From contig JAQCJL010000002.1 in assembly GCA_027593125.1 (NCBI GenBank), positions 1 to 64,000 of the forward strand: a DNA stretch of 64,000 bases. Direction: 5' to 3'. Below are positions 53,444-62,066 of this stretch, piece by piece; position 1 is the first letter of the stretch; each line of letters opens with the position of its first letter. Position numbers and translations under genes: made by a program. The notes beneath the pieces are model-generated. The model saw only the letters and a list, made by a program, of their open reading frames with translations, searched no databases and was not told the origin of the DNA. This DNA comes from Pseudomonadota bacterium (lineage in GTDB: Bacteria; Pseudomonadota; Alphaproteobacteria; Puniceispirillales; UBA1172).

Positions 53444-54604
<1,161 letters not shown>

Positions 54605-54615
54605 GGGAAATCGCA

Positions 54616-55566
54616 TTGCCCAACATTGCGACGGAGCGAAAGAAAGGACGTCGGTCCGGTGGTCTGCTCACGCATCTGATTATTTTTATTGTCTGCGTGG
54701 TCTTAATGATGGCAGGCAAGGCCGATATTTCGGCGATGAACTCCTTGCGCAGTATGGTGGCAGGATTTTTTACCCCTTTGGCTGAGGCGGTTAGCGTCCC
54801 TTTTCGAGCCCTAGGCATTATGATTGACGGCATTGAAAATGTTGCCCAACTGCGCGAAGAAAACAATACCCTCAAAGAAGAAGTCCAAAACCTCCGCCGC
54901 TGGGAAAACGAAGTGGCGGTGTTGCTAGCTGAAAATCGCCAATTGCGCGCTTTAAGCAAATTTCCTGTGCCTGAAGGTATGAATGCTGTTTCTGCGCGTG
55001 TTATCGCCATTAATGCGGATAGTTTTGCCCATGCTGTCATGATTGATGTTGGGGCAAAAGACGGCATTAACAAAGGGGATACGGTTACGACCATGGATGG
55101 TCTGGTTGGGCTGGTCGTTGAGGTGGGTGAGTTTTACGCCCAAGTTCTGCTGATCACAGATCTTAATGCGATGATCCCTGTTATTCTTTCAGGCACATCA
55201 TGGCCTGCGGTGACCGCAGGGGTTAATGCCAGTCTGCTTGATCTACGATTTGTTCCCGGTCAGGCGGAAATTAAACAAGGTGAGCTTGTTCAGACGTCTG
55301 GGCATGGCGGGTTGATCCCTGCTGGCCTACCTGTTGGCAAAGTGATTCAGATTACAGATCAGCGTATTCGCGTTAAACCGGTTGTGGATTTAGAGCGCCT
55401 TAGTTTTGTTACTGTGCTGAGCTGGCCAAAAGAAAACGATATGCCTAGGGACGATGTGTTTAATCAAAGCTATTCGCCTTTGCCTGATGATACCAATAGC
55501 TTTAGTCTTGAAGGGATAAACGCGTTTGGTCAAAAGGTAGGTGATGCCGCAGAAGAGGAGCAATAG
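54616..55566 (+). CDS. mreC: Rod shape-determining protein MreC
   Basis: A 316-residue bitopic protein. A cytoplasmic basic N-terminus (ATERKKGRRSGG) precedes a membrane helix (LLTHLIIFIVCVVLMMAG, about residues 17-34). A coiled coil (LREENNTLKEEVQNLR) and the periplasmic beta domain follow. It links MreB to the cell-wall enzymes. The start is TTG, supported by AGGGGAAA 6 bases upstream. It is 11 bases after mreB and 2 before mreD. Confidence 0.94.
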   Translation: MPNIATERKKGRRSGGLLTHLIIFIVCVVLMMAGKADISAMNSLRSMVAGFFTPLAEAVSVPFRALGIMIDGIENVAQLREENNTLKEEVQNLRRWENEVAVLLAENRQLRALSKFPVPEGMNAVSARVIAINADSFAHAVMIDVGAKDGINKGDTVTTMDGLVGLVVEVGEFYAQVLLITDLNAMIPVILSGTSWPAVTAGVNASLLDLRFVPGQAEIKQGELVQTSGHGGLIPAGLPVGKVIQITDQRIRVKPVVDLERLSFVTVLSWPKENDMPRDDVFNQSYSPLPDDTNSFSLEGINAFGQKVGDAAEEEQ

Positions 55567-55568
55567 GC

Positions 55569-56093
55569 ATGCCAATTAGCTCTATTGCATCCCCACCTAC
55601 GCTGCAGCATCAATGCGTTAACTTTGCCCTGATGTTTATTGTTGCCTTTGCTGAAATCGCGCTGGCATATTTTCCTTTATTTTTTGGGGTTTCCCCTAAG
55701 CTATTGATTACTATCGTATTTTTAATAGCGATCTACGATGAAGAACAGAATCATTTCATCAACCTTATTGGCGTTGGTTTGATTTATGACATGATGCAAT
55801 CAGCGCCTCTTGGTTATACCTCTGGGGCAATGATTTTGGTTAATCTCTTTGGCATCCTATCGCGGCATCGGCTTAAAAATGTCCAGCAATCTTTGATATG
55901 GCTAGAATACGCAGCGCTTATGGTTACCGTGATGCTCTATACTTGGATTTGCATTGTTTTGATTAATCAGGGCTTTCCTGCAGTCATGCCACTGGTGTTT
56001 CAGTATAGCGTAACGGTTTTGCTGTTTCCAATTATGATTGGAATTTATAAATTAGAATTGTCCTTAATGGAATTGATACGCAGGTTGAAATGA
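55569..56093 (+). CDS. mreD: Rod shape-determining protein MreD
   Basis: A 174-residue hydrophobic inner-membrane protein with about five predicted helices, such as FALMFIVAFAEIALAYFPLF and LLITIVFLIAIY. Its sequence is weakly conserved, as MreD always is, but size, topology and place between mreC and mrdA identify it. It overlaps mrdA by 4 bases (ATGA). Confidence 0.9.
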   Translation: MPISSIASPPTLQHQCVNFALMFIVAFAEIALAYFPLFFGVSPKLLITIVFLIAIYDEEQNHFINLIGVGLIYDMMQSAPLGYTSGAMILVNLFGILSRHRLKNVQQSLIWLEYAALMVTVMLYTWICIVLINQGFPAVMPLVFQYSVTVLLFPIMIGIYKLELSLMELIRRLK

Positions 56094-58033
56094 TCACTCG
56101 TAAGGCAAAGCAGTTTGAGCATACCTTGTCGCGGCGATCCTTATTGCTAGCTGGTGGGCAGGTGGCATTGACTTCTGCCTTGGTAGGACGATTGTTCTAT
56201 TTACAGATCATGGAATCAAGCCGTTATGAGGCATTATCAAATCGGAACCGGTTTGATTATAAAATGTTGCCGCCCTCGCGTGGACGCATTTTTGATAGCA
56301 AAGGCCGTCTTCTTGCTGGAAATGCAGAGGCCTATGCCCTGAATATTGTGCCAAGCTATACAAAAGACCTTTATCAGTCTTTACGCGCCTTATCTGAACT
56401 GATCAAATTAGATCATCTTTACATCGACGAATTAATGGAAAAGGCAGAAAAGCAACCATCTTATCTGCCGCTTATTATTCGTGATGATTTGACCCAGCGT
56501 GAGGTCGCAAGGGTCGTGGTAAGAGGCCCTGAATTACCGGGTGTGAGTTTTGACCGCATTGAAAAGCGCATCTATCCGCAAGGCTTGCTGACAGGGCATT
56601 TGACAGGCTATGTGGGGCGGGTAAGCGAGGATGATATCACCTCTGGCCGTGTATTGCCCAACATGGTGAATATGCAAAATGGCAAATCTGGTGTTGAGCG
56701 TGCCCTTGAGGAAGAACTAAGGGGGCTGCCGGGGCAAGAAAGGGTGTTGGTAAATGCCCTTGGCCGACCAATTAAAAAATCCATAGAAGAAGCGGCAACC
56801 CCTGGCACGGATATCAAACTTACAATTGATATTAATCTGCAATCCTATGCGACCAGTATTCTTCGCAGGGGTCGTAACAAACCAATTTCTTACAGTGATC
56901 CCAAGGTGCAGCGTGCTTTGGCGGCAGACCCTGAACTGGCAAGTGCGGTGTCAGAAACAGAAGGCTTTGTTTTTGAAGACAGCCTTGGGCGTGTTGTGCC
57001 ACCAGAAACAGGATCGATTGTTGTCATAGATATTGAAACAGGGGCACTTAAGACCATTGTTTCAACCCCTACATTTGATCCAAACATTCTGTCCCGCCGG
57101 ATCAGCAACGCGGACTGGGGCACACTGGTTAATCACCCGCGCATTCCCTTATTAGACCGAAGCATTAAAGGGCAATATGCCCCTGGATCAACCTTTAAGA
57201 TGATCGTTGCGCTAGCGGCTTTAGAGGCTGGCATTATCAATGAAAAGACACGCTTCTTTTGCTCAGGTCATAAAGATGTGGGTAATGCCCGGTTTCATTG
57301 CTGGTTCAAATATGGGCATGGCAATGTCAATGTGATTAATGCGCTTGAACAGTCTTGTGATGTGTTTTTCTATGAATTGGCACTGAAAACAGGAATACAG
57401 CGCATCGCCAGTATGGCAAAGATATTCGGGATCGGACTGCCGACAGATGTTTTGATACCGGGGGAAAAACCCGGGCTAATGCCTGATAAAAAATGGAAAG
57501 AACAAAACATTGGTCAGGTTTGGACCCCCGGAGAAACAGTGGTGGCCTCAATCGGTCAGGGTTATGTGTTAACAACCCCCATTCAGTTAGCTGTGATGAT
57601 GGCTCGTCTTGCTAATGGAAAGTTTCAGATCAGCCCACAACTAAAGCAAGGGACGCCAGCCCCTGATGCCCCTGAGATTGGGGTTTCAGAAGCTTCCCTG
57701 TCTATAATCAGGCGTGGTATGGAGGCTGTGCTAGACGGCAAGAAAGGAACCGCACGAAATTATCAGCTGGACCTCGACGGGGTTAAAATGGCTGGCAAAA
57801 CCGGCACCGTTCAGGTTAAACGGATCACCAAAGCTGAACGTGATCGCGGCATTGTAGATAACATGGATAGGCCTTGGAAACTCAGGGATCATGCCCTTTT
57901 TGTTGGTTACGCGCCAATGGATAAGCCAAAATATGCTATCGCTGTTGTTGTAGAGCATGGCGGTTCGGGGTCATCCGCTGCCGCGCCAGTGGCAAGAGAT
58001 ATCATGACCTATTTGTTTGAGCAGAACTTATGA
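56090..58033 (+). CDS. mrdA: Penicillin-binding protein 2
   Basis: A 647-residue class B PBP, the transpeptidase of side-wall elongation. A short cytoplasmic start and a membrane segment (SLLLAGGQVALTSALVGRLF, residues 17-36) precede the dimerisation domain (PPSRGRIFDSKGRLLAGN). Catalytic motifs are STFK (serine after YAPG, near residue 370), the SxN region in EQSCDVFFYEL, and KTGTVQ. It overlaps mreD and rodA by 4 bases each, so translation is coupled. Confidence 0.96.
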   Translation: MITRKAKQFEHTLSRRSLLLAGGQVALTSALVGRLFYLQIMESSRYEALSNRNRFDYKMLPPSRGRIFDSKGRLLAGNAEAYALNIVPSYTKDLYQSLRALSELIKLDHLYIDELMEKAEKQPSYLPLIIRDDLTQREVARVVVRGPELPGVSFDRIEKRIYPQGLLTGHLTGYVGRVSEDDITSGRVLPNMVNMQNGKSGVERALEEELRGLPGQERVLVNALGRPIKKSIEEAATPGTDIKLTIDINLQSYATSILRRGRNKPISYSDPKVQRALAADPELASAVSETEGFVFEDSLGRVVPPETGSIVVIDIETGALKTIVSTPTFDPNILSRRISNADWGTLVNHPRIPLLDRSIKGQYAPGSTFKMIVALAALEAGIINEKTRFFCSGHKDVGNARFHCWFKYGHGNVNVINALEQSCDVFFYELALKTGIQRIASMAKIFGIGLPTDVLIPGEKPGLMPDKKWKEQNIGQVWTPGETVVASIGQGYVLTTPIQLAVMMARLANGKFQISPQLKQGTPAPDAPEIGVSEASLSIIRRGMEAVLDGKKGTARNYQLDLDGVKMAGKTGTVQVKRITKAERDRGIVDNMDRPWKLRDHALFVGYAPMDKPKYAIAVVVEHGGSGSSAAAPVARDIMTYLFEQNL

Positions 58034-59187
58034 AAAAACTGATCAGTCCACGGCATGTTCCTACTTTTTCCACGCCGTTGCACAGCAATACTGGTGCGAC
58101 CACAGGATGGTTTCGGGCTATCCCATGGCTAATGATTTTTGTGCTGATGATGATTGGCATGGTTGGGGTTTTGTCCCTTTACTCTGCTGCACATGGGGCT
58201 TGGCGCCCTTGGGCTTCCATGCACGCTATTCGGTTGGGGCTTGGCTTTACCTTAATGATGGTGGTTGCCATGATCCCCATTCATTTTATTCGCCGCTACG
58301 CCATCTTATGGTGGGTATTGGCGATCATGCTCTTAGCGGTGCTAGAGGTTATCGGAACAGGCAAAGGGGGGGTGCAACGTTGGGTTTCTATTGCCGGATT
58401 TAATTTACAGCCGTCCGAGCCAGCGAAACTGGCTGTCATCGTTATGCTAGCAGCCTATTTTCATGGGCTTTATCCCGATATGCTTAGATATATCCGAACT
58501 TATATTCCGGCAATTTTGATTATCATGATCCCATTTACTCAAGTGCTCTTACAGCCGGATCTGGGCACGTCGCTAATGTTGTTGCTAGCCGCTTCGGTGG
58601 TAATCTTTGCTGCTGGGATACCGCGCTGGATGGTGATGACGGTATTTGGTTTGGTGCTTGCGGCGATACCAATTGGATGGTCGATGCTTTACCCTTATCA
58701 GAAAAGCCGAATTATGGTGTTTCTTAATCCTGATCTTGATGCGCTTGGCGCTGGTTATCAGATCACGCAATCCAAAATTGCCTTGGGCAGTGGCGGTGTT
58801 GTTGGCAAAGGCTATCTACAAGGCAGTCAAAGCCATCTGGATTTTCTGCCTGAACGCCAGACGGATTTCATCTTTACCATGATTGGTGAGGAGTTTGGAT
58901 TTTTTGGCTGCATTTATGTCATTGGACTTTATACAGCGTTGATCTTTCTTCTGATCCGATACAGTTTTGCCATGAAGATTAATTTTTCTAGATTGCTGGT
59001 CATAGGTGTCGCTGCGATGATCAGTTTTTATGTGACTGTCAATATTGCTATGGTATCTGGAATGTTGCCGGTGGTAGGCGCGCCATTGCCCTTAATTTCT
59101 TATGGCGGTACAGCCATGATGACTGTTTTTCTTGGCCTTGGTCTGGTGATTAGTGCCATGCTGAATGAAAAGGATGTTCATGACTGA
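58030..59187 (+). CDS. mrdB: Peptidoglycan glycosyltransferase RodA
   Basis: A 385-residue SEDS-family polytopic membrane protein, the glycan polymerase paired with PBP2. GGVQRWVSIAGFNLQPSEPAKLAVI, PDLGTSLMLLLAA and DFIFTMIGEEFGFFG are SEDS signatures; PLPLISYGGTAMMT closes the protein. About ten hydrophobic segments are visible. Its stop shares one base with the start of the sigma-54-like gene (TGATG). Confidence 0.95.
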   Translation: MKKLISPRHVPTFSTPLHSNTGATTGWFRAIPWLMIFVLMMIGMVGVLSLYSAAHGAWRPWASMHAIRLGLGFTLMMVVAMIPIHFIRRYAILWWVLAIMLLAVLEVIGTGKGGVQRWVSIAGFNLQPSEPAKLAVIVMLAAYFHGLYPDMLRYIRTYIPAILIIMIPFTQVLLQPDLGTSLMLLLAASVVIFAAGIPRWMVMTVFGLVLAAIPIGWSMLYPYQKSRIMVFLNPDLDALGAGYQITQSKIALGSGGVVGKGYLQGSQSHLDFLPERQTDFIFTMIGEEFGFFGCIYVIGLYTALIFLLIRYSFAMKINFSRLLVIGVAAMISFYVTVNIAMVSGMLPVVGAPLPLISYGGTAMMTVFLGLGLVISAMLNEKDVHD

Positions 59188-60500
59188 TGGTCAGACCGCC
59201 TGCTAAGCCTAATCATCAGCGCCAAAACCTTGTGGCCAAACCCTCACAGCGTCTTGCTCTTACTCCTGCCATGCGGCAATCCTTAAGGCTTATGTCATGG
59301 CGCAATCATCAGATCACCCGATTTGTTCGGGATTTGGCAGCCAATAACCCTTTTATTGAAGTTGACTACCCCGCCTCTGTTATCCGCAAGCCTGATGATC
59401 CTAGGTTGGAAACTGCCTTTTCTGCTGCAATGGCGATAGACCGTGTGGAAATATCCTTAACCGCGCATCTCATAAATGAGATTTCTTTATTGCTTCCTTC
59501 TGGTCGTGATCGGGCGGTAGCCATGGCATTGGTGGAACATATTACCCCTGCTGGTTGGTTAGAACTCGCGGCAAAGGAAACCGCCGCAAGTCTAGGCGTA
59601 ACTGGCGACGAATATGAACACCTCATCACGCGACTGCAACATATGGAACCGGTGGGGTTATTTGCCCGAAATCTCTCAGAATGTTTGGCGCTTCAGCTTA
59701 AAGATCGCGGTGATTATGACAGCGTAATGGAACGCTTGTTGCCGCATTTATCCCTTTTGCTTGAGGGAGGGCAGGATGCTTTGGTTAAAGCCACAGGATT
59801 ACCCCTTGATCAGGTGCAATCAGGTCTCTCTCGCTTGCGTCAGCTAGACCCCAAGCCAGGGGCTAGATTTCAGCATGATGACGGAGATATTTTTAGGCCT
59901 GATGTGATAATTTCTAAGCAAGATGATGGTTATGACATTGCCCTTAATAAAGCTAATTTGCCAAGTGTTCGTGTGGCAGAGGATATGTTTGATGATGCAG
60001 ATTTAAAACCGATTCTGCAAAAAGCCAGAGCAGAAGTTAGCGTCCTTAACGCGGCTTTATCTTCACGTGCAAATATGCTTTTGGCTTTGACTAGATTTGT
60101 TGTCACCAAGCAAGCTGGGTATCTAAAAGAAGGGGATGTGGCGCTTCTGCCTCTCACCATGAAAACGGCTGCTCAACATCTTGATTGTCATGCCAGTACG
60201 ATTACGCGTCTGGTTAAAGATAAACTGATCCTAACGCCCCGCGGCATGGTGCCTCTGGCTGATTTTTTCAGCTCATCCGTTGTGAATGCAATAGGCAAAG
60301 AAATTGCCAGCCGTGCCATTTCCGCAAGCATTGTTTCAGCCATTGAAGGAGAAGAAAAGGCCCATCCGCTATCTGATCCTGATCTCGTGGTGATGATCAA
60401 ACACAGCTTTGGATTGACCCTCACGCCAAGGGCTATTGCCAAGCACCGCGCAAGGCTTCATATTGCTAAAGCGTCGGAACGTCGCTTACCCTATATGTAA
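59187..60500 (+). CDS. rpoN: Divergent RNA polymerase sigma-54 factor
   Basis: A 437-residue RpoN homologue. Region I (residues 20-60) keeps QRLALTPAMRQSLRLM and NNPFIEVD. The core-binding domain shows GLFARNLSECLALQ (157-170) and LDPKPG (220-225). A helix-turn-helix (325-361) includes HASTITRLVKDK and LTPRGMVPLADFFSS. The RpoN box, normally ARRTVAKYRE, is TPRAIAKHRA here (413-422), so the first arginine is lost. It is 40-60 residues shorter than most RpoN. The start shares one base with the rodA stop (TGATG), which puts it in the cell-shape operon; no enhancer-binding protein or RpoN promoter was found here. Confidence 0.85.
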   Translation: MVRPPAKPNHQRQNLVAKPSQRLALTPAMRQSLRLMSWRNHQITRFVRDLAANNPFIEVDYPASVIRKPDDPRLETAFSAAMAIDRVEISLTAHLINEISLLLPSGRDRAVAMALVEHITPAGWLELAAKETAASLGVTGDEYEHLITRLQHMEPVGLFARNLSECLALQLKDRGDYDSVMERLLPHLSLLLEGGQDALVKATGLPLDQVQSGLSRLRQLDPKPGARFQHDDGDIFRPDVIISKQDDGYDIALNKANLPSVRVAEDMFDDADLKPILQKARAEVSVLNAALSSRANMLLALTRFVVTKQAGYLKEGDVALLPLTMKTAAQHLDCHASTITRLVKDKLILTPRGMVPLADFFSSSVVNAIGKEIASRAISASIVSAIEGEEKAHPLSDPDLVVMIKHSFGLTLTPRAIAKHRARLHIAKASERRLPYM

Positions 60501-60584: not shown

Positions 60585-62066
60585 ATGATCTTTTCCTTTT
60601 TTCCTCGGCCAAAACAGTTTTTTCTGTCGTTGTTGTTCTGGATTATTTGCGCCACCTTATTTTGGAATATCAGCGTCAGTGATTTTTTGACCTTGCTGTT
60701 TGGTCAGACACCAGATGATGGTGGGGAAGCGGTGCTTGCTACCTCAACTCGCCTAGTGGCTCTGGTTCTGTATCTTGGGGTGATGGCGGCGGCATTTTTA
60801 GGGTTTTGGTCGCTTGATCGTGACTGCTGGCAAGGCCGTCCTGTGTTGGTTCTGACAACTGGCATCATTTGGTTGGCTTTGACCTATCTGATTTGGTCAA
60901 CCACCTTTGGCGGTATCATGGCGGCTTTAGGCATGCCAATCATTTCCCCAGAAGAACCCGTGATTGGGCTTGGATTTTTTGTTACCTCGGACTTTCTGAT
61001 TTTCTATGTCTATTTTGCCTTACTAACAGGGCTATTTTATTTATTCTGGCAAATCTATGCGCCCCATAAATGGGGGAAATGGTCGATCCTTGGTTCAGCG
61101 TTTATTCTTTTTAACACCTATTTTGGGGTTCAAGTATCAGTTGCGATTAACCATTGGCGCAGGCCATTTTTTGATATGTTGCAATCCACTTTGCAAACCC
61201 CTGGCACCTACACGCAATGGGATTTTTATAGTGGCCTGCTGACCTTCACCAATATCGCGATGGTGGCAGTGTTTATCTTTACCCTGACGCGATTTTTTGT
61301 CAGCCATTATATCTTTCGTTGGCGGACAGCGATGAATGATTACTACCTCAGCCATTGGACAAAGCTTCGCCAAGTAGAAGGGGCATCTCAGCGTATTCAA
61401 GAGGATACCATGCGTTTTGCGACCATCATGGAAGACCTTGGGGTCAGTGTGATTGATGCTCTTATGACATTATTTGCGTTCTTGCCAATCTTGCTTAGCC
61501 TGTCGGTTTATGTTGATGAATTACCCATTTTGGGGGCTATTCCTAATCCATTGGTGTGGTCATCTATTGTTTGGGCTGTTTTTGGCACAATCCTATTGGC
61601 GGTGGTTGGCATTAAATTGCCAGGACTGCAATTCCGCAATCAGCGTGTGGAAGCGGCGTTCAGAAAAGAGTTGGTTTATGGTGAGGATGATGACACGCGC
61701 GCACAACCGCCTACGGTGCATCAGTTGTTCAATAATGTCAGACGAAATTATTTTCGCATTTATTTTCATTATGTGTATTTCAACGCGACCCGTAATTTGT
61801 ATTTTCAGGCGGATAACATTTTTCCCTTTGTTATTCTTGTGCCAACCTTTGTCATGGGCAAGATCACGTGGGGGATTTTTCAACAAATCCTAACCGCCTT
61901 TGGGCAAGTGGCTAATTCTTTTCAGCTCGTGGTTGCGGCATGGCCAACGATTGTTGAGTTGCTTTCTATCTTTAAGCGTCTGAAAGGCTTTGAGGCAGTT
62001 TTATACGATAAACCCCTGCCAGATCTGGATCAGGAGTTTTTGGCCGGAACTGATACGGATGCCTAA
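60585..62066 (+). CDS. sbmA: SbmA/BacA family peptide transporter
   Basis: A 493-residue inner-membrane transporter that takes up proline-rich and other antimicrobial peptides in relatives. FFVSHYIFRWRTAMNDYYLS, QRIQEDTMRFATIMEDLGVS, the LPGLQFRNQRVEAAFRKELVY stretch and FNATRNLYFQADNIFPF are family landmarks. E. coli SbmA has 406 residues; here an extra segment at about 45-125 with two hydrophobic stretches sits between the first helix and FFVTSDFLIFYVYF. It starts 84 bases after the sigma-54 gene and overlaps hldE tail-to-tail by 4 bases. Confidence 0.92.
   Translation: MIFSFFPRPKQFFLSLLFWIICATLFWNISVSDFLTLLFGQTPDDGGEAVLATSTRLVALVLYLGVMAAAFLGFWSLDRDCWQGRPVLVLTTGIIWLALTYLIWSTTFGGIMAALGMPIISPEEPVIGLGFFVTSDFLIFYVYFALLTGLFYLFWQIYAPHKWGKWSILGSAFILFNTYFGVQVSVAINHWRRPFFDMLQSTLQTPGTYTQWDFYSGLLTFTNIAMVAVFIFTLTRFFVSHYIFRWRTAMNDYYLSHWTKLRQVEGASQRIQEDTMRFATIMEDLGVSVIDALMTLFAFLPILLSLSVYVDELPILGAIPNPLVWSSIVWAVFGTILLAVVGIKLPGLQFRNQRVEAAFRKELVYGEDDDTRAQPPTVHQLFNNVRRNYFRIYFHYVYFNATRNLYFQADNIFPFVILVPTFVMGKITWGIFQQILTAFGQVANSFQLVVAAWPTIVELLSIFKRLKGFEAVLYDKPLPDLDQEFLAGTDTDA

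What the first reader, a model, noticed from the sequence alone, without database searches (positions are those of the whole stretch)
59187..60500. Divergent sigma-54 factor translationally coupled to rodA in the mre operon
Seen: the rpoN-like ATG shares a base with the rodA stop (TGATG), and the five upstream genes are all coupled or closely spaced (mreB-C-D-mrdA-rodA). The RpoN box reads TPRAIAKHRA instead of ARRTVAKYRE, and the protein is short. Known: rpoN normally sits by lptB, hpf and ptsN, and the RpoN box recognises the -24 element. Inference: this may be a specialised sigma-54 with altered -24 recognition, co-produced with the elongation machinery.
Basis: partly seen in the sequence, partly recalled or inferred. 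Interest (0 to 1): 0.62.

Follow-up and report, generated by a model that had tools for sequence, protein, structure and literature searches.

The report
Sigma-54 with rewritten promoter code
A marine SAR116 bacterium carries a second sigma-54 transcription factor, in its cell-shape operon, that has lost a promoter-reading residue described as invariant, and the one nitrogen promoter it probably serves has changed in the matching place, which looks like a natural lock-and-key rewrite of sigma-54 specificity.

Summary
A 437-aa sigma-54 with all three domains starts on the last base of the rodA stop codon, in mreBCD-mrdA-rodA-rpoN. The genome has a second, canonical rpoN (RRTVAKYRE), so this one is a paralogue, "RpoN2". 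The locus is conserved in the SAR116 family and was not seen in the rest of the order.
The altered RpoN box is confined to one genus (7/7 genomes); other genera keep ARRT[IV]AKYR in the same operon. The change removes E. coli R455, called invariant and a -24 reader; the -12 readers are kept.
RpoN1 goes with flagella (near motAB, lost with FliF, TGGCA sites in flagellar promoters). RpoN2 goes with NtrC. In genomes with only a canonical-box RpoN2, the clear sigma-54 promoter is glnB-glnA, below an NtrC-like box, with TGG at -24. In the altered-box genus the same promoter reads AGAACC at the same spacing in 5/5 genomes, with -12 TTGC kept.
Best reading: a nitrogen-dedicated sigma-54 whose -24 specificity coevolved with its one operon. 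The mre operon supplies expression, not targets. Caveats: one orthologous promoter, one evolutionary event, no expression data.

The parts
53564..54604 (+). mreB (host operon)
   Evidence: ORF and conserved synteny; gene name from own knowledge of the sequence
54616..55566 (+). mreC (host operon)
   Evidence: ORF and conserved synteny
55569..56093 (+). mreD (host operon)
   Evidence: ORF and conserved synteny
56090..58033 (+). mrdA, penicillin-binding protein 2
   Evidence: TIGR03423 above cut-off
58030..59187 (+). rodA; its TGA shares its last base with the rpoN2 start codon
   Evidence: TIGR02210 above cut-off; sequence
59187..60500 (+). rpoN2, divergent sigma-54, 437 aa
   Evidence: three Pfam sigma-54 domains, TIGR02395 above cut-off
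59238..59363 (+). Region I, activator-interacting domain (residues 18-59)
   Evidence: PF00309, 33.2 bits against a cut-off of 23.8
60159..60215 (+). -12-reading helix-turn-helix (residues 325-343), with H335, S337 and R341 matching E. coli H377, S379 and R383
   Evidence: alignments, helices in the model, residue roles from PMC9770992
60423..60452 (+). altered RpoN box TPRAIAKHRA (residues 413-422); P414 stands at E. coli R455, R415 at R456
   Evidence: alignments
60585..62066 (+). SbmA/BacA-type peptide transporter gene following rpoN2
   Evidence: PF05992 and NF008306 above cut-off

Best explanation
RpoN2 is a functional sigma-54 that serves the NtrC activator and, in practice, mainly one operon, glnB-glnA, while RpoN1 serves the flagellum. 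In one SAR116 genus the -24-reading RpoN box of RpoN2 changed (ARRTVAKYR to T[PA]RA[IV]AK[HR]R, losing R455), and the glnB -24 element changed with it, from TGG(C/A)A to AGAACC in the same register, while the -12 element and its helix-turn-helix stayed canonical. The result is a sigma-54/promoter pair that is probably insulated from RpoN1. A regulon of about one promoter would make such a joint change feasible. The place behind rodA gives steady, growth-linked expression and does not imply cell-shape targets. Shown by sequence: paralogy, synteny, box change, co-occurrences, promoter change and its conservation. Inferred: that RpoN2 binds AGAACC, that RpoN1 does not, and that NtrC is the partner.
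For: Canonical rpoN elsewhere in the genome. RpoN2 in 11 of 12 family genomes and not seen outside the family in the order, with conserved synteny. Box altered in 7/7 genomes of the genus and canonical in the four other-genus RpoN2 proteins. R455 and R456 read CTGGC at -24; H377, S379 and R383 read -12 (PMC9770992), and only R455 of these is lost. RpoN1 and FliF are jointly present or jointly absent in all nine family genomes at least 90% complete; canonical sites in flagellar promoters. NtrC keeps GAFTGA; NtrX shows none where read in full. glnB promoter TGG in four canonical-box or RpoN1-only genomes, AGAACC in 5/5 altered-box genomes; 13 of 16 element positions invariant against 3 of 44 flanking. 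Only the glnB copies of GAACC-N4-TTGCT are correctly placed. NtrC-like box upstream of glnB and at the start of dusB-ntrB-ntrC. Fold kept.
Against: Only one orthologous promoter supports the new element. The box change and the promoter change are each a single event on the same branch, so they are not independent replicates. G008 and G010 are close relatives. One -24 change (C to A) is already present in G001, whose box is canonical. No binding or expression data. ntrC of the window's own genome is cut by a contig end, and glnB is missing from the G006 and G009 assemblies.
Confidence: 0.64

Rival explanations
1. RpoN2 is a nitrogen-dedicated sigma-54, but its -24 contact is merely relaxed. The box degenerated because NtrC and the -12 contact carry the promoter, and AGAACC is tolerated drift or is compensated elsewhere, rather than a new specificity.
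For: RpoN2 evolves faster than RpoN1 (40% against 69% identity between G000 and G001). With few targets, selection on -24 reading may be weak. R455A or R456A abolishes -24 binding in the laboratory protein (PMC7175178).
Against: AGAACC is invariant in 5 genomes while its flanks diverge, and the altered box is itself conserved in the genus, with R456, K460 and R462 kept. Drift would not hold either constant.
Confidence: 0.2
2. The glnB promoter of the genus left sigma-54 control. AGAACC-N3-A-TTGCTT is the site of another regulator or sigma factor, and RpoN2 acts on promoters not found here.
For: No direct evidence links RpoN2 to this site, and GG is lost.
Against: The position, register and -12 TTGC match the sigma-54 promoters of relatives. 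The ribosome-binding site and start codon lie too close for a sigma-70 -10 element if TTGCTT were a -35. The NtrC-like box is still upstream. G011 keeps a sole sigma-54 and NtrC, which need some target.
Confidence: 0.1
3. RpoN2 controls cell-envelope or elongation genes, co-produced with MreBCD, PBP2 and RodA.
For: Conserved operon membership and stop/start overlap or near-overlap.
Against: No convincing sigma-54 sites upstream of the mre genes. The only GAFTGA activators found are NtrC and the two flagellar ones.
Confidence: 0.04
4. RpoN2 is a decaying paralogue without function.
For: Fast evolution and loss of an invariant residue.
Against: Open frame wherever found and all domains conserved. 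It is the only sigma-54 in G011, G002 and G003 while NtrC remains. Confident sigma-54 fold.
Confidence: 0.02

Closest known systems
Specialised RpoN paralogues of Rhodobacter (Cereibacter) sphaeroides (RpoN1-4)
   Same: Alphaproteobacterial sigma-54 paralogues with separate regulons, one of them devoted to flagella (PMC7277832)
   Different: Their reported promoter difference is at -11 (PMC3162934); here the change is in the -24 element and the RpoN box, and the gene sits in the mre operon
Two RpoNs of Bradyrhizobium japonicum, Rhizobium etli and Xanthomonas
   Same: Two sigma-54 genes in one genome with divided roles (PMC3162934, PMC7280030)
   Different: The B. japonicum promoter difference is at -12; no RpoN-box rewrite was found in the passages read
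Laboratory R455/R456 mutants of E. coli-type sigma-54
   Same: Change at the same -24-reading arginines
   Different: The alanine mutants lose -24 binding (PMC7175178); here the loss of R455 is natural, stable across a genus, and matched by a changed promoter
Canonical NtrC/RpoN control of glnB-glnA
   Same: NtrC-like box upstream and a -24/-12 promoter before glnB
   Different: The -24 is AGAACC in this genus, and the sigma is a dedicated paralogue

Membership tests
Sigma-54 (RpoN) family | Region I, activator-interacting domain | tested here: met
   PF00309, 33.2 bits against a cut-off of 23.8
Sigma-54 (RpoN) family | Core-binding domain | tested here: met
   PF04963, 140.1 bits
Sigma-54 (RpoN) family | C-terminal DNA-binding domain with -12 helix-turn-helix and RpoN domain | tested here: met
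   PF04552, 122.8 bits; the RpoN domain of the model superposes on 2O8K at 1.9 A
Sigma-54 (RpoN) family | Activator-dependent transcription with RNA polymerase | not testable with these tools
   needs biochemistry; only a GAFTGA-bearing NtrC and an upstream box were seen
Canonical-specificity sigma-54 (reads TGGCAY-N5-TTGCW) | RpoN box with both R455 and R456 | tested here: not met
   R455 replaced by P or A in 7/7 genomes of the genus; R456 kept
Canonical-specificity sigma-54 (reads TGGCAY-N5-TTGCW) | -12-reading residues H377, S379, R383 | tested here: met
   H335, S337, R341 of RpoN2
Canonical-specificity sigma-54 (reads TGGCAY-N5-TTGCW) | GG at -25/-24 in the target promoter | tested here: not met
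   AG in 5/5 glnB promoters of the genus, with no GG near; the assignment of this target to RpoN2 is inferred
R. sphaeroides-type specialised RpoN paralogues | Second sigma-54 with a separate regulon from a flagellar one | tested here: inconclusive
   RpoN1 tracks flagella and RpoN2 does not; the regulon split is inferred from promoters
R. sphaeroides-type specialised RpoN paralogues | Shared ancestry with those paralogues | tested here: inconclusive
   RpoN2 is one clade (100/99) apart from 5 plasmid RpoNs, but branches are long, and the sphaeroides RpoN1-4 themselves were not included

The most novel reading that the evidence does not exclude
A naturally orthogonal sigma-54: in one cell RpoN1 reads TGGCA-type -24 elements (flagella) and RpoN2 reads only AGAACC (glnB-glnA). 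This specificity switch would have been made possible by a sigma factor whose whole regulon is about one operon.
Probability: 0.5. Interest if true: 0.76.

Novelty: new variant of a known kind. Interest (0 to 1): 0.66.

Why it matters
Sigma-54 promoter recognition is regarded as nearly fixed, with R455 and R456 called invariant, and the paralogue promoters reported in the paper read differ only at -11 or -12. A natural -24 rewrite with a matching promoter would show how sigma-54 specificity can evolve, help identify which arginine sets which base, and offer a ready-made orthogonal sigma-54/promoter pair. It also warns that standard -24/-12 motif scans miss the nitrogen promoter in this genus.

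Tried and rejected
Canonical motif scan of the mre and ntr loci: no convincing sites there. TGGCAY-N5-TTGCW in RpoN2-only genomes: most hits lie inside genes, but this exposed glnB in G002 and G003. amtB/glnK promoters as nitrogen targets: no consistent -24/-12 site. AGAACC-N4-TTGCW genome-wide: only a modest excess in the genus (22 in 7 genomes against 7 in 5); apart from glnB the hits are mostly inside genes, and the intergenic ones in G011 (by an integrase-like gene) and G006 look like chance. NtrC-like box before uvrC in G001 and G009: no sigma-54 site seen. The library gave no paper on rpoN in SAR116 or on natural RpoN-box variants.

Full report
CHECK OF THE OBSERVATION. The ORF at 59187-60500 is real. 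It encodes a 437-aa sigma-54 with activator-interacting, core-binding and DNA-binding domains and passes NCBI's rpoN model. Its ATG takes the last base of the rodA stop (TGATG). It follows mreB-mreC-mreD-mrdA-rodA and precedes an SbmA/BacA-type transporter gene. The box TPRAIAKHRA is as stated.

A SECOND, CANONICAL rpoN. The genome (1.99 Mb, 97% complete) has a second rpoN with RRTVAKYRE. The named closest contigs include a SAR116 cluster bacterium. I call the canonical gene RpoN1 and the mre-linked gene RpoN2. In the family of 12 genomes, RpoN2 is in all but the 76%-complete G005. It was not seen in the other 124 genomes of the order: their sigma-54 hits are high-scoring canonical-type ones, bar fragments and one 182-bit hit in G062 that was not read. 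The order ilvC-mreBCD-mrdA-rodA-rpoN2-(sbmA) recurs wherever the contig is long enough, with the stop and start overlapping or nearly so. RpoN2 forms one clade (support 100/99) on a long branch; its origin relative to RpoN1 is not resolved. It evolves faster than RpoN1 (40% against 69% identity between G000 and G001).

THE BOX CHANGE IS GENUS-WIDE AND DERIVED. All 7 genomes of the window's genus read T[PA]RA[IV]AK[HR]RA. The four RpoN2 proteins of other genera read ARRT[IV]AKYR, as do the RpoN1 proteins read, E. coli, and four of five plasmid copies. On the E. coli scale (R455 located), R455 is lost, R456, K460 and R462 are kept, and Y461 is changed. PMC9770992 calls R455 and R456 invariant and has them recognise CTGGC around -25/-24, with H377, S379 and R383 reading -12. 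PMC7175178 reports that alanine mutants of either arginine cannot bind the -24 region. RpoN2 keeps all three -12 readers. An AlphaFold model (mean pLDDT 84.6) keeps the recognition helix at 414-423, starting at the substituted residue, and the RpoN domain superposes on the -24-bound domain 2O8K at 1.9 A. So -24 reading is predicted to be altered and -12 reading intact.

WHO USES WHICH SIGMA. RpoN1 tracks flagella. Among the nine family genomes at least 90% complete, RpoN1 and FliF are both present in six and both absent in three (G002, G003, G011). rpoN1 lies near motA/motB-like genes in G001 and G005 (names from own knowledge). The flagellar cluster carries two activators with GAFTGA (GSFTGA in one G007 copy) and TGGCA-type -24/-12 sites. 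The remaining activator with GAFTGA is NtrC. NtrX shows no GAFTGA motif where read in full. G011, a single-contig genome 99% complete, has RpoN2 as its only sigma-54, with NtrC and NtrX and no flagellar activators.

THE TARGET PROMOTER. In the RpoN2-only genomes G002 and G003, whose RpoN2 box is canonical, the clear canonical site in promoter position is upstream of glnB-glnA. Orthologous promoters compared: G002 TTGGCATGAAAGTTGCA, G003 TTGGCATGAATGTTGCA, G001 CTGGAACAAAAGTTGCT, G005 CTGGCTTGAAAGTTGCA. In the altered-box genus: G000 and G007 AAAGAACCGATATTGCT, G008 and G010 TAAGAACCTTTATTGCT, G011 ACAGAACCAAAATTGCT. The register to TTGC is the same. The first G of the GG pair is A in 5/5, and there is no GG at or near -24. 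Anchored on TTGC, 13 of 16 positions of the element are invariant, against 3 of 44 flanking positions (Fisher 5e-8). TTGC lies 28-44 bp before the start codon throughout. In four genomes of the genus, GAACC-N4-TTGCT occurs 20 times, and only the four glnB copies are correctly placed promoters (an overlapping antisense ORF at the G011 site is taken as spurious). The natural comparison is G011 against G002 and G003: each has a single sigma-54, and box and -24 differ together.

THE ACTIVATOR SITE. A palindrome of the type TGCCTAAAATTTAGGCA (TGC-N11-GCA, the spacing of NtrC sites by own knowledge) lies 106-226 bp upstream of the predicted glnB start and at the start of dusB-ntrB-ntrC in most genomes. 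The reversed-pattern control gives 0 hits in 10 of the 12 genomes and two in each of the other two. This supports NtrC control of glnB in both groups.

MECHANISM AND HOW SURE. Most likely RpoN2 holoenzyme binds AGAACC-N4-TTGC at glnB, is remodelled by NtrC bound at the upstream box, and is insulated from the flagellar RpoN1 system. With about one target promoter, sigma and promoter could change together. Sequence shows the paralogy, the box change, the promoter change and its conservation. Binding, insulation and partner choice are inferred. The main weaknesses are one promoter, one evolutionary event, and a C to A change already present in G001.

KNOWN CONTEXT. Specialised RpoN paralogues are known. 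In R. sphaeroides one is devoted to flagella (PMC7277832). Reported promoter differences between paralogues are at -11 (R. sphaeroides) or -12 (B. japonicum) (PMC3162934). I found no report of a natural -24 change in the library searched, which lacks most subscription papers.

Noticed in passing
L097:3927-4200 (G000 C80); L094:6878-7162 (G001); L093:5350-5640 (G005); similar sites in L010, L033, L043, L045, L049-L051, L053: A sigma-54-like site (TGGCAC-N5-ATGC) precedes a small ORF of about 70-80 aa that points at the 3' end of rpoN1. The small protein (MNEDIANRFITTDD... in G000) is alike in G000 and G001; a possible flagellar or RpoN1-linked small protein.
   Followed up: partly
L012 (G004 C86): The rpoN1 reading frame has its Region I replaced by repeats of the DGDGDGV type (calcium-binding-like); probably a chimaeric assembly.
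   Followed up: no
L192:1501-1517 (G001) and L218:1501-1517 (G009): An NtrC-like box lies in the gap between uvrB-like and uvrC-like genes, with no sigma-54 site seen.
   Followed up: partly
window 60585-62066; L087, L088, L089, L091: The sbmA/bacA gene after rpoN2 is a same-strand close relative in G009, G011 and G001-G004, but in G006, G007, G008 and G010 the match is only about 42% identical and on the opposite strand.
   Followed up: no
L223:559-1857 (Neorhizobium petrolearium plasmid): A plasmid sigma-54 between a GTP-binding protein gene and a CoA-transferase gene has the box SRRTVANRRR, keeping R455 and R456 but altered further along.
   Followed up: no
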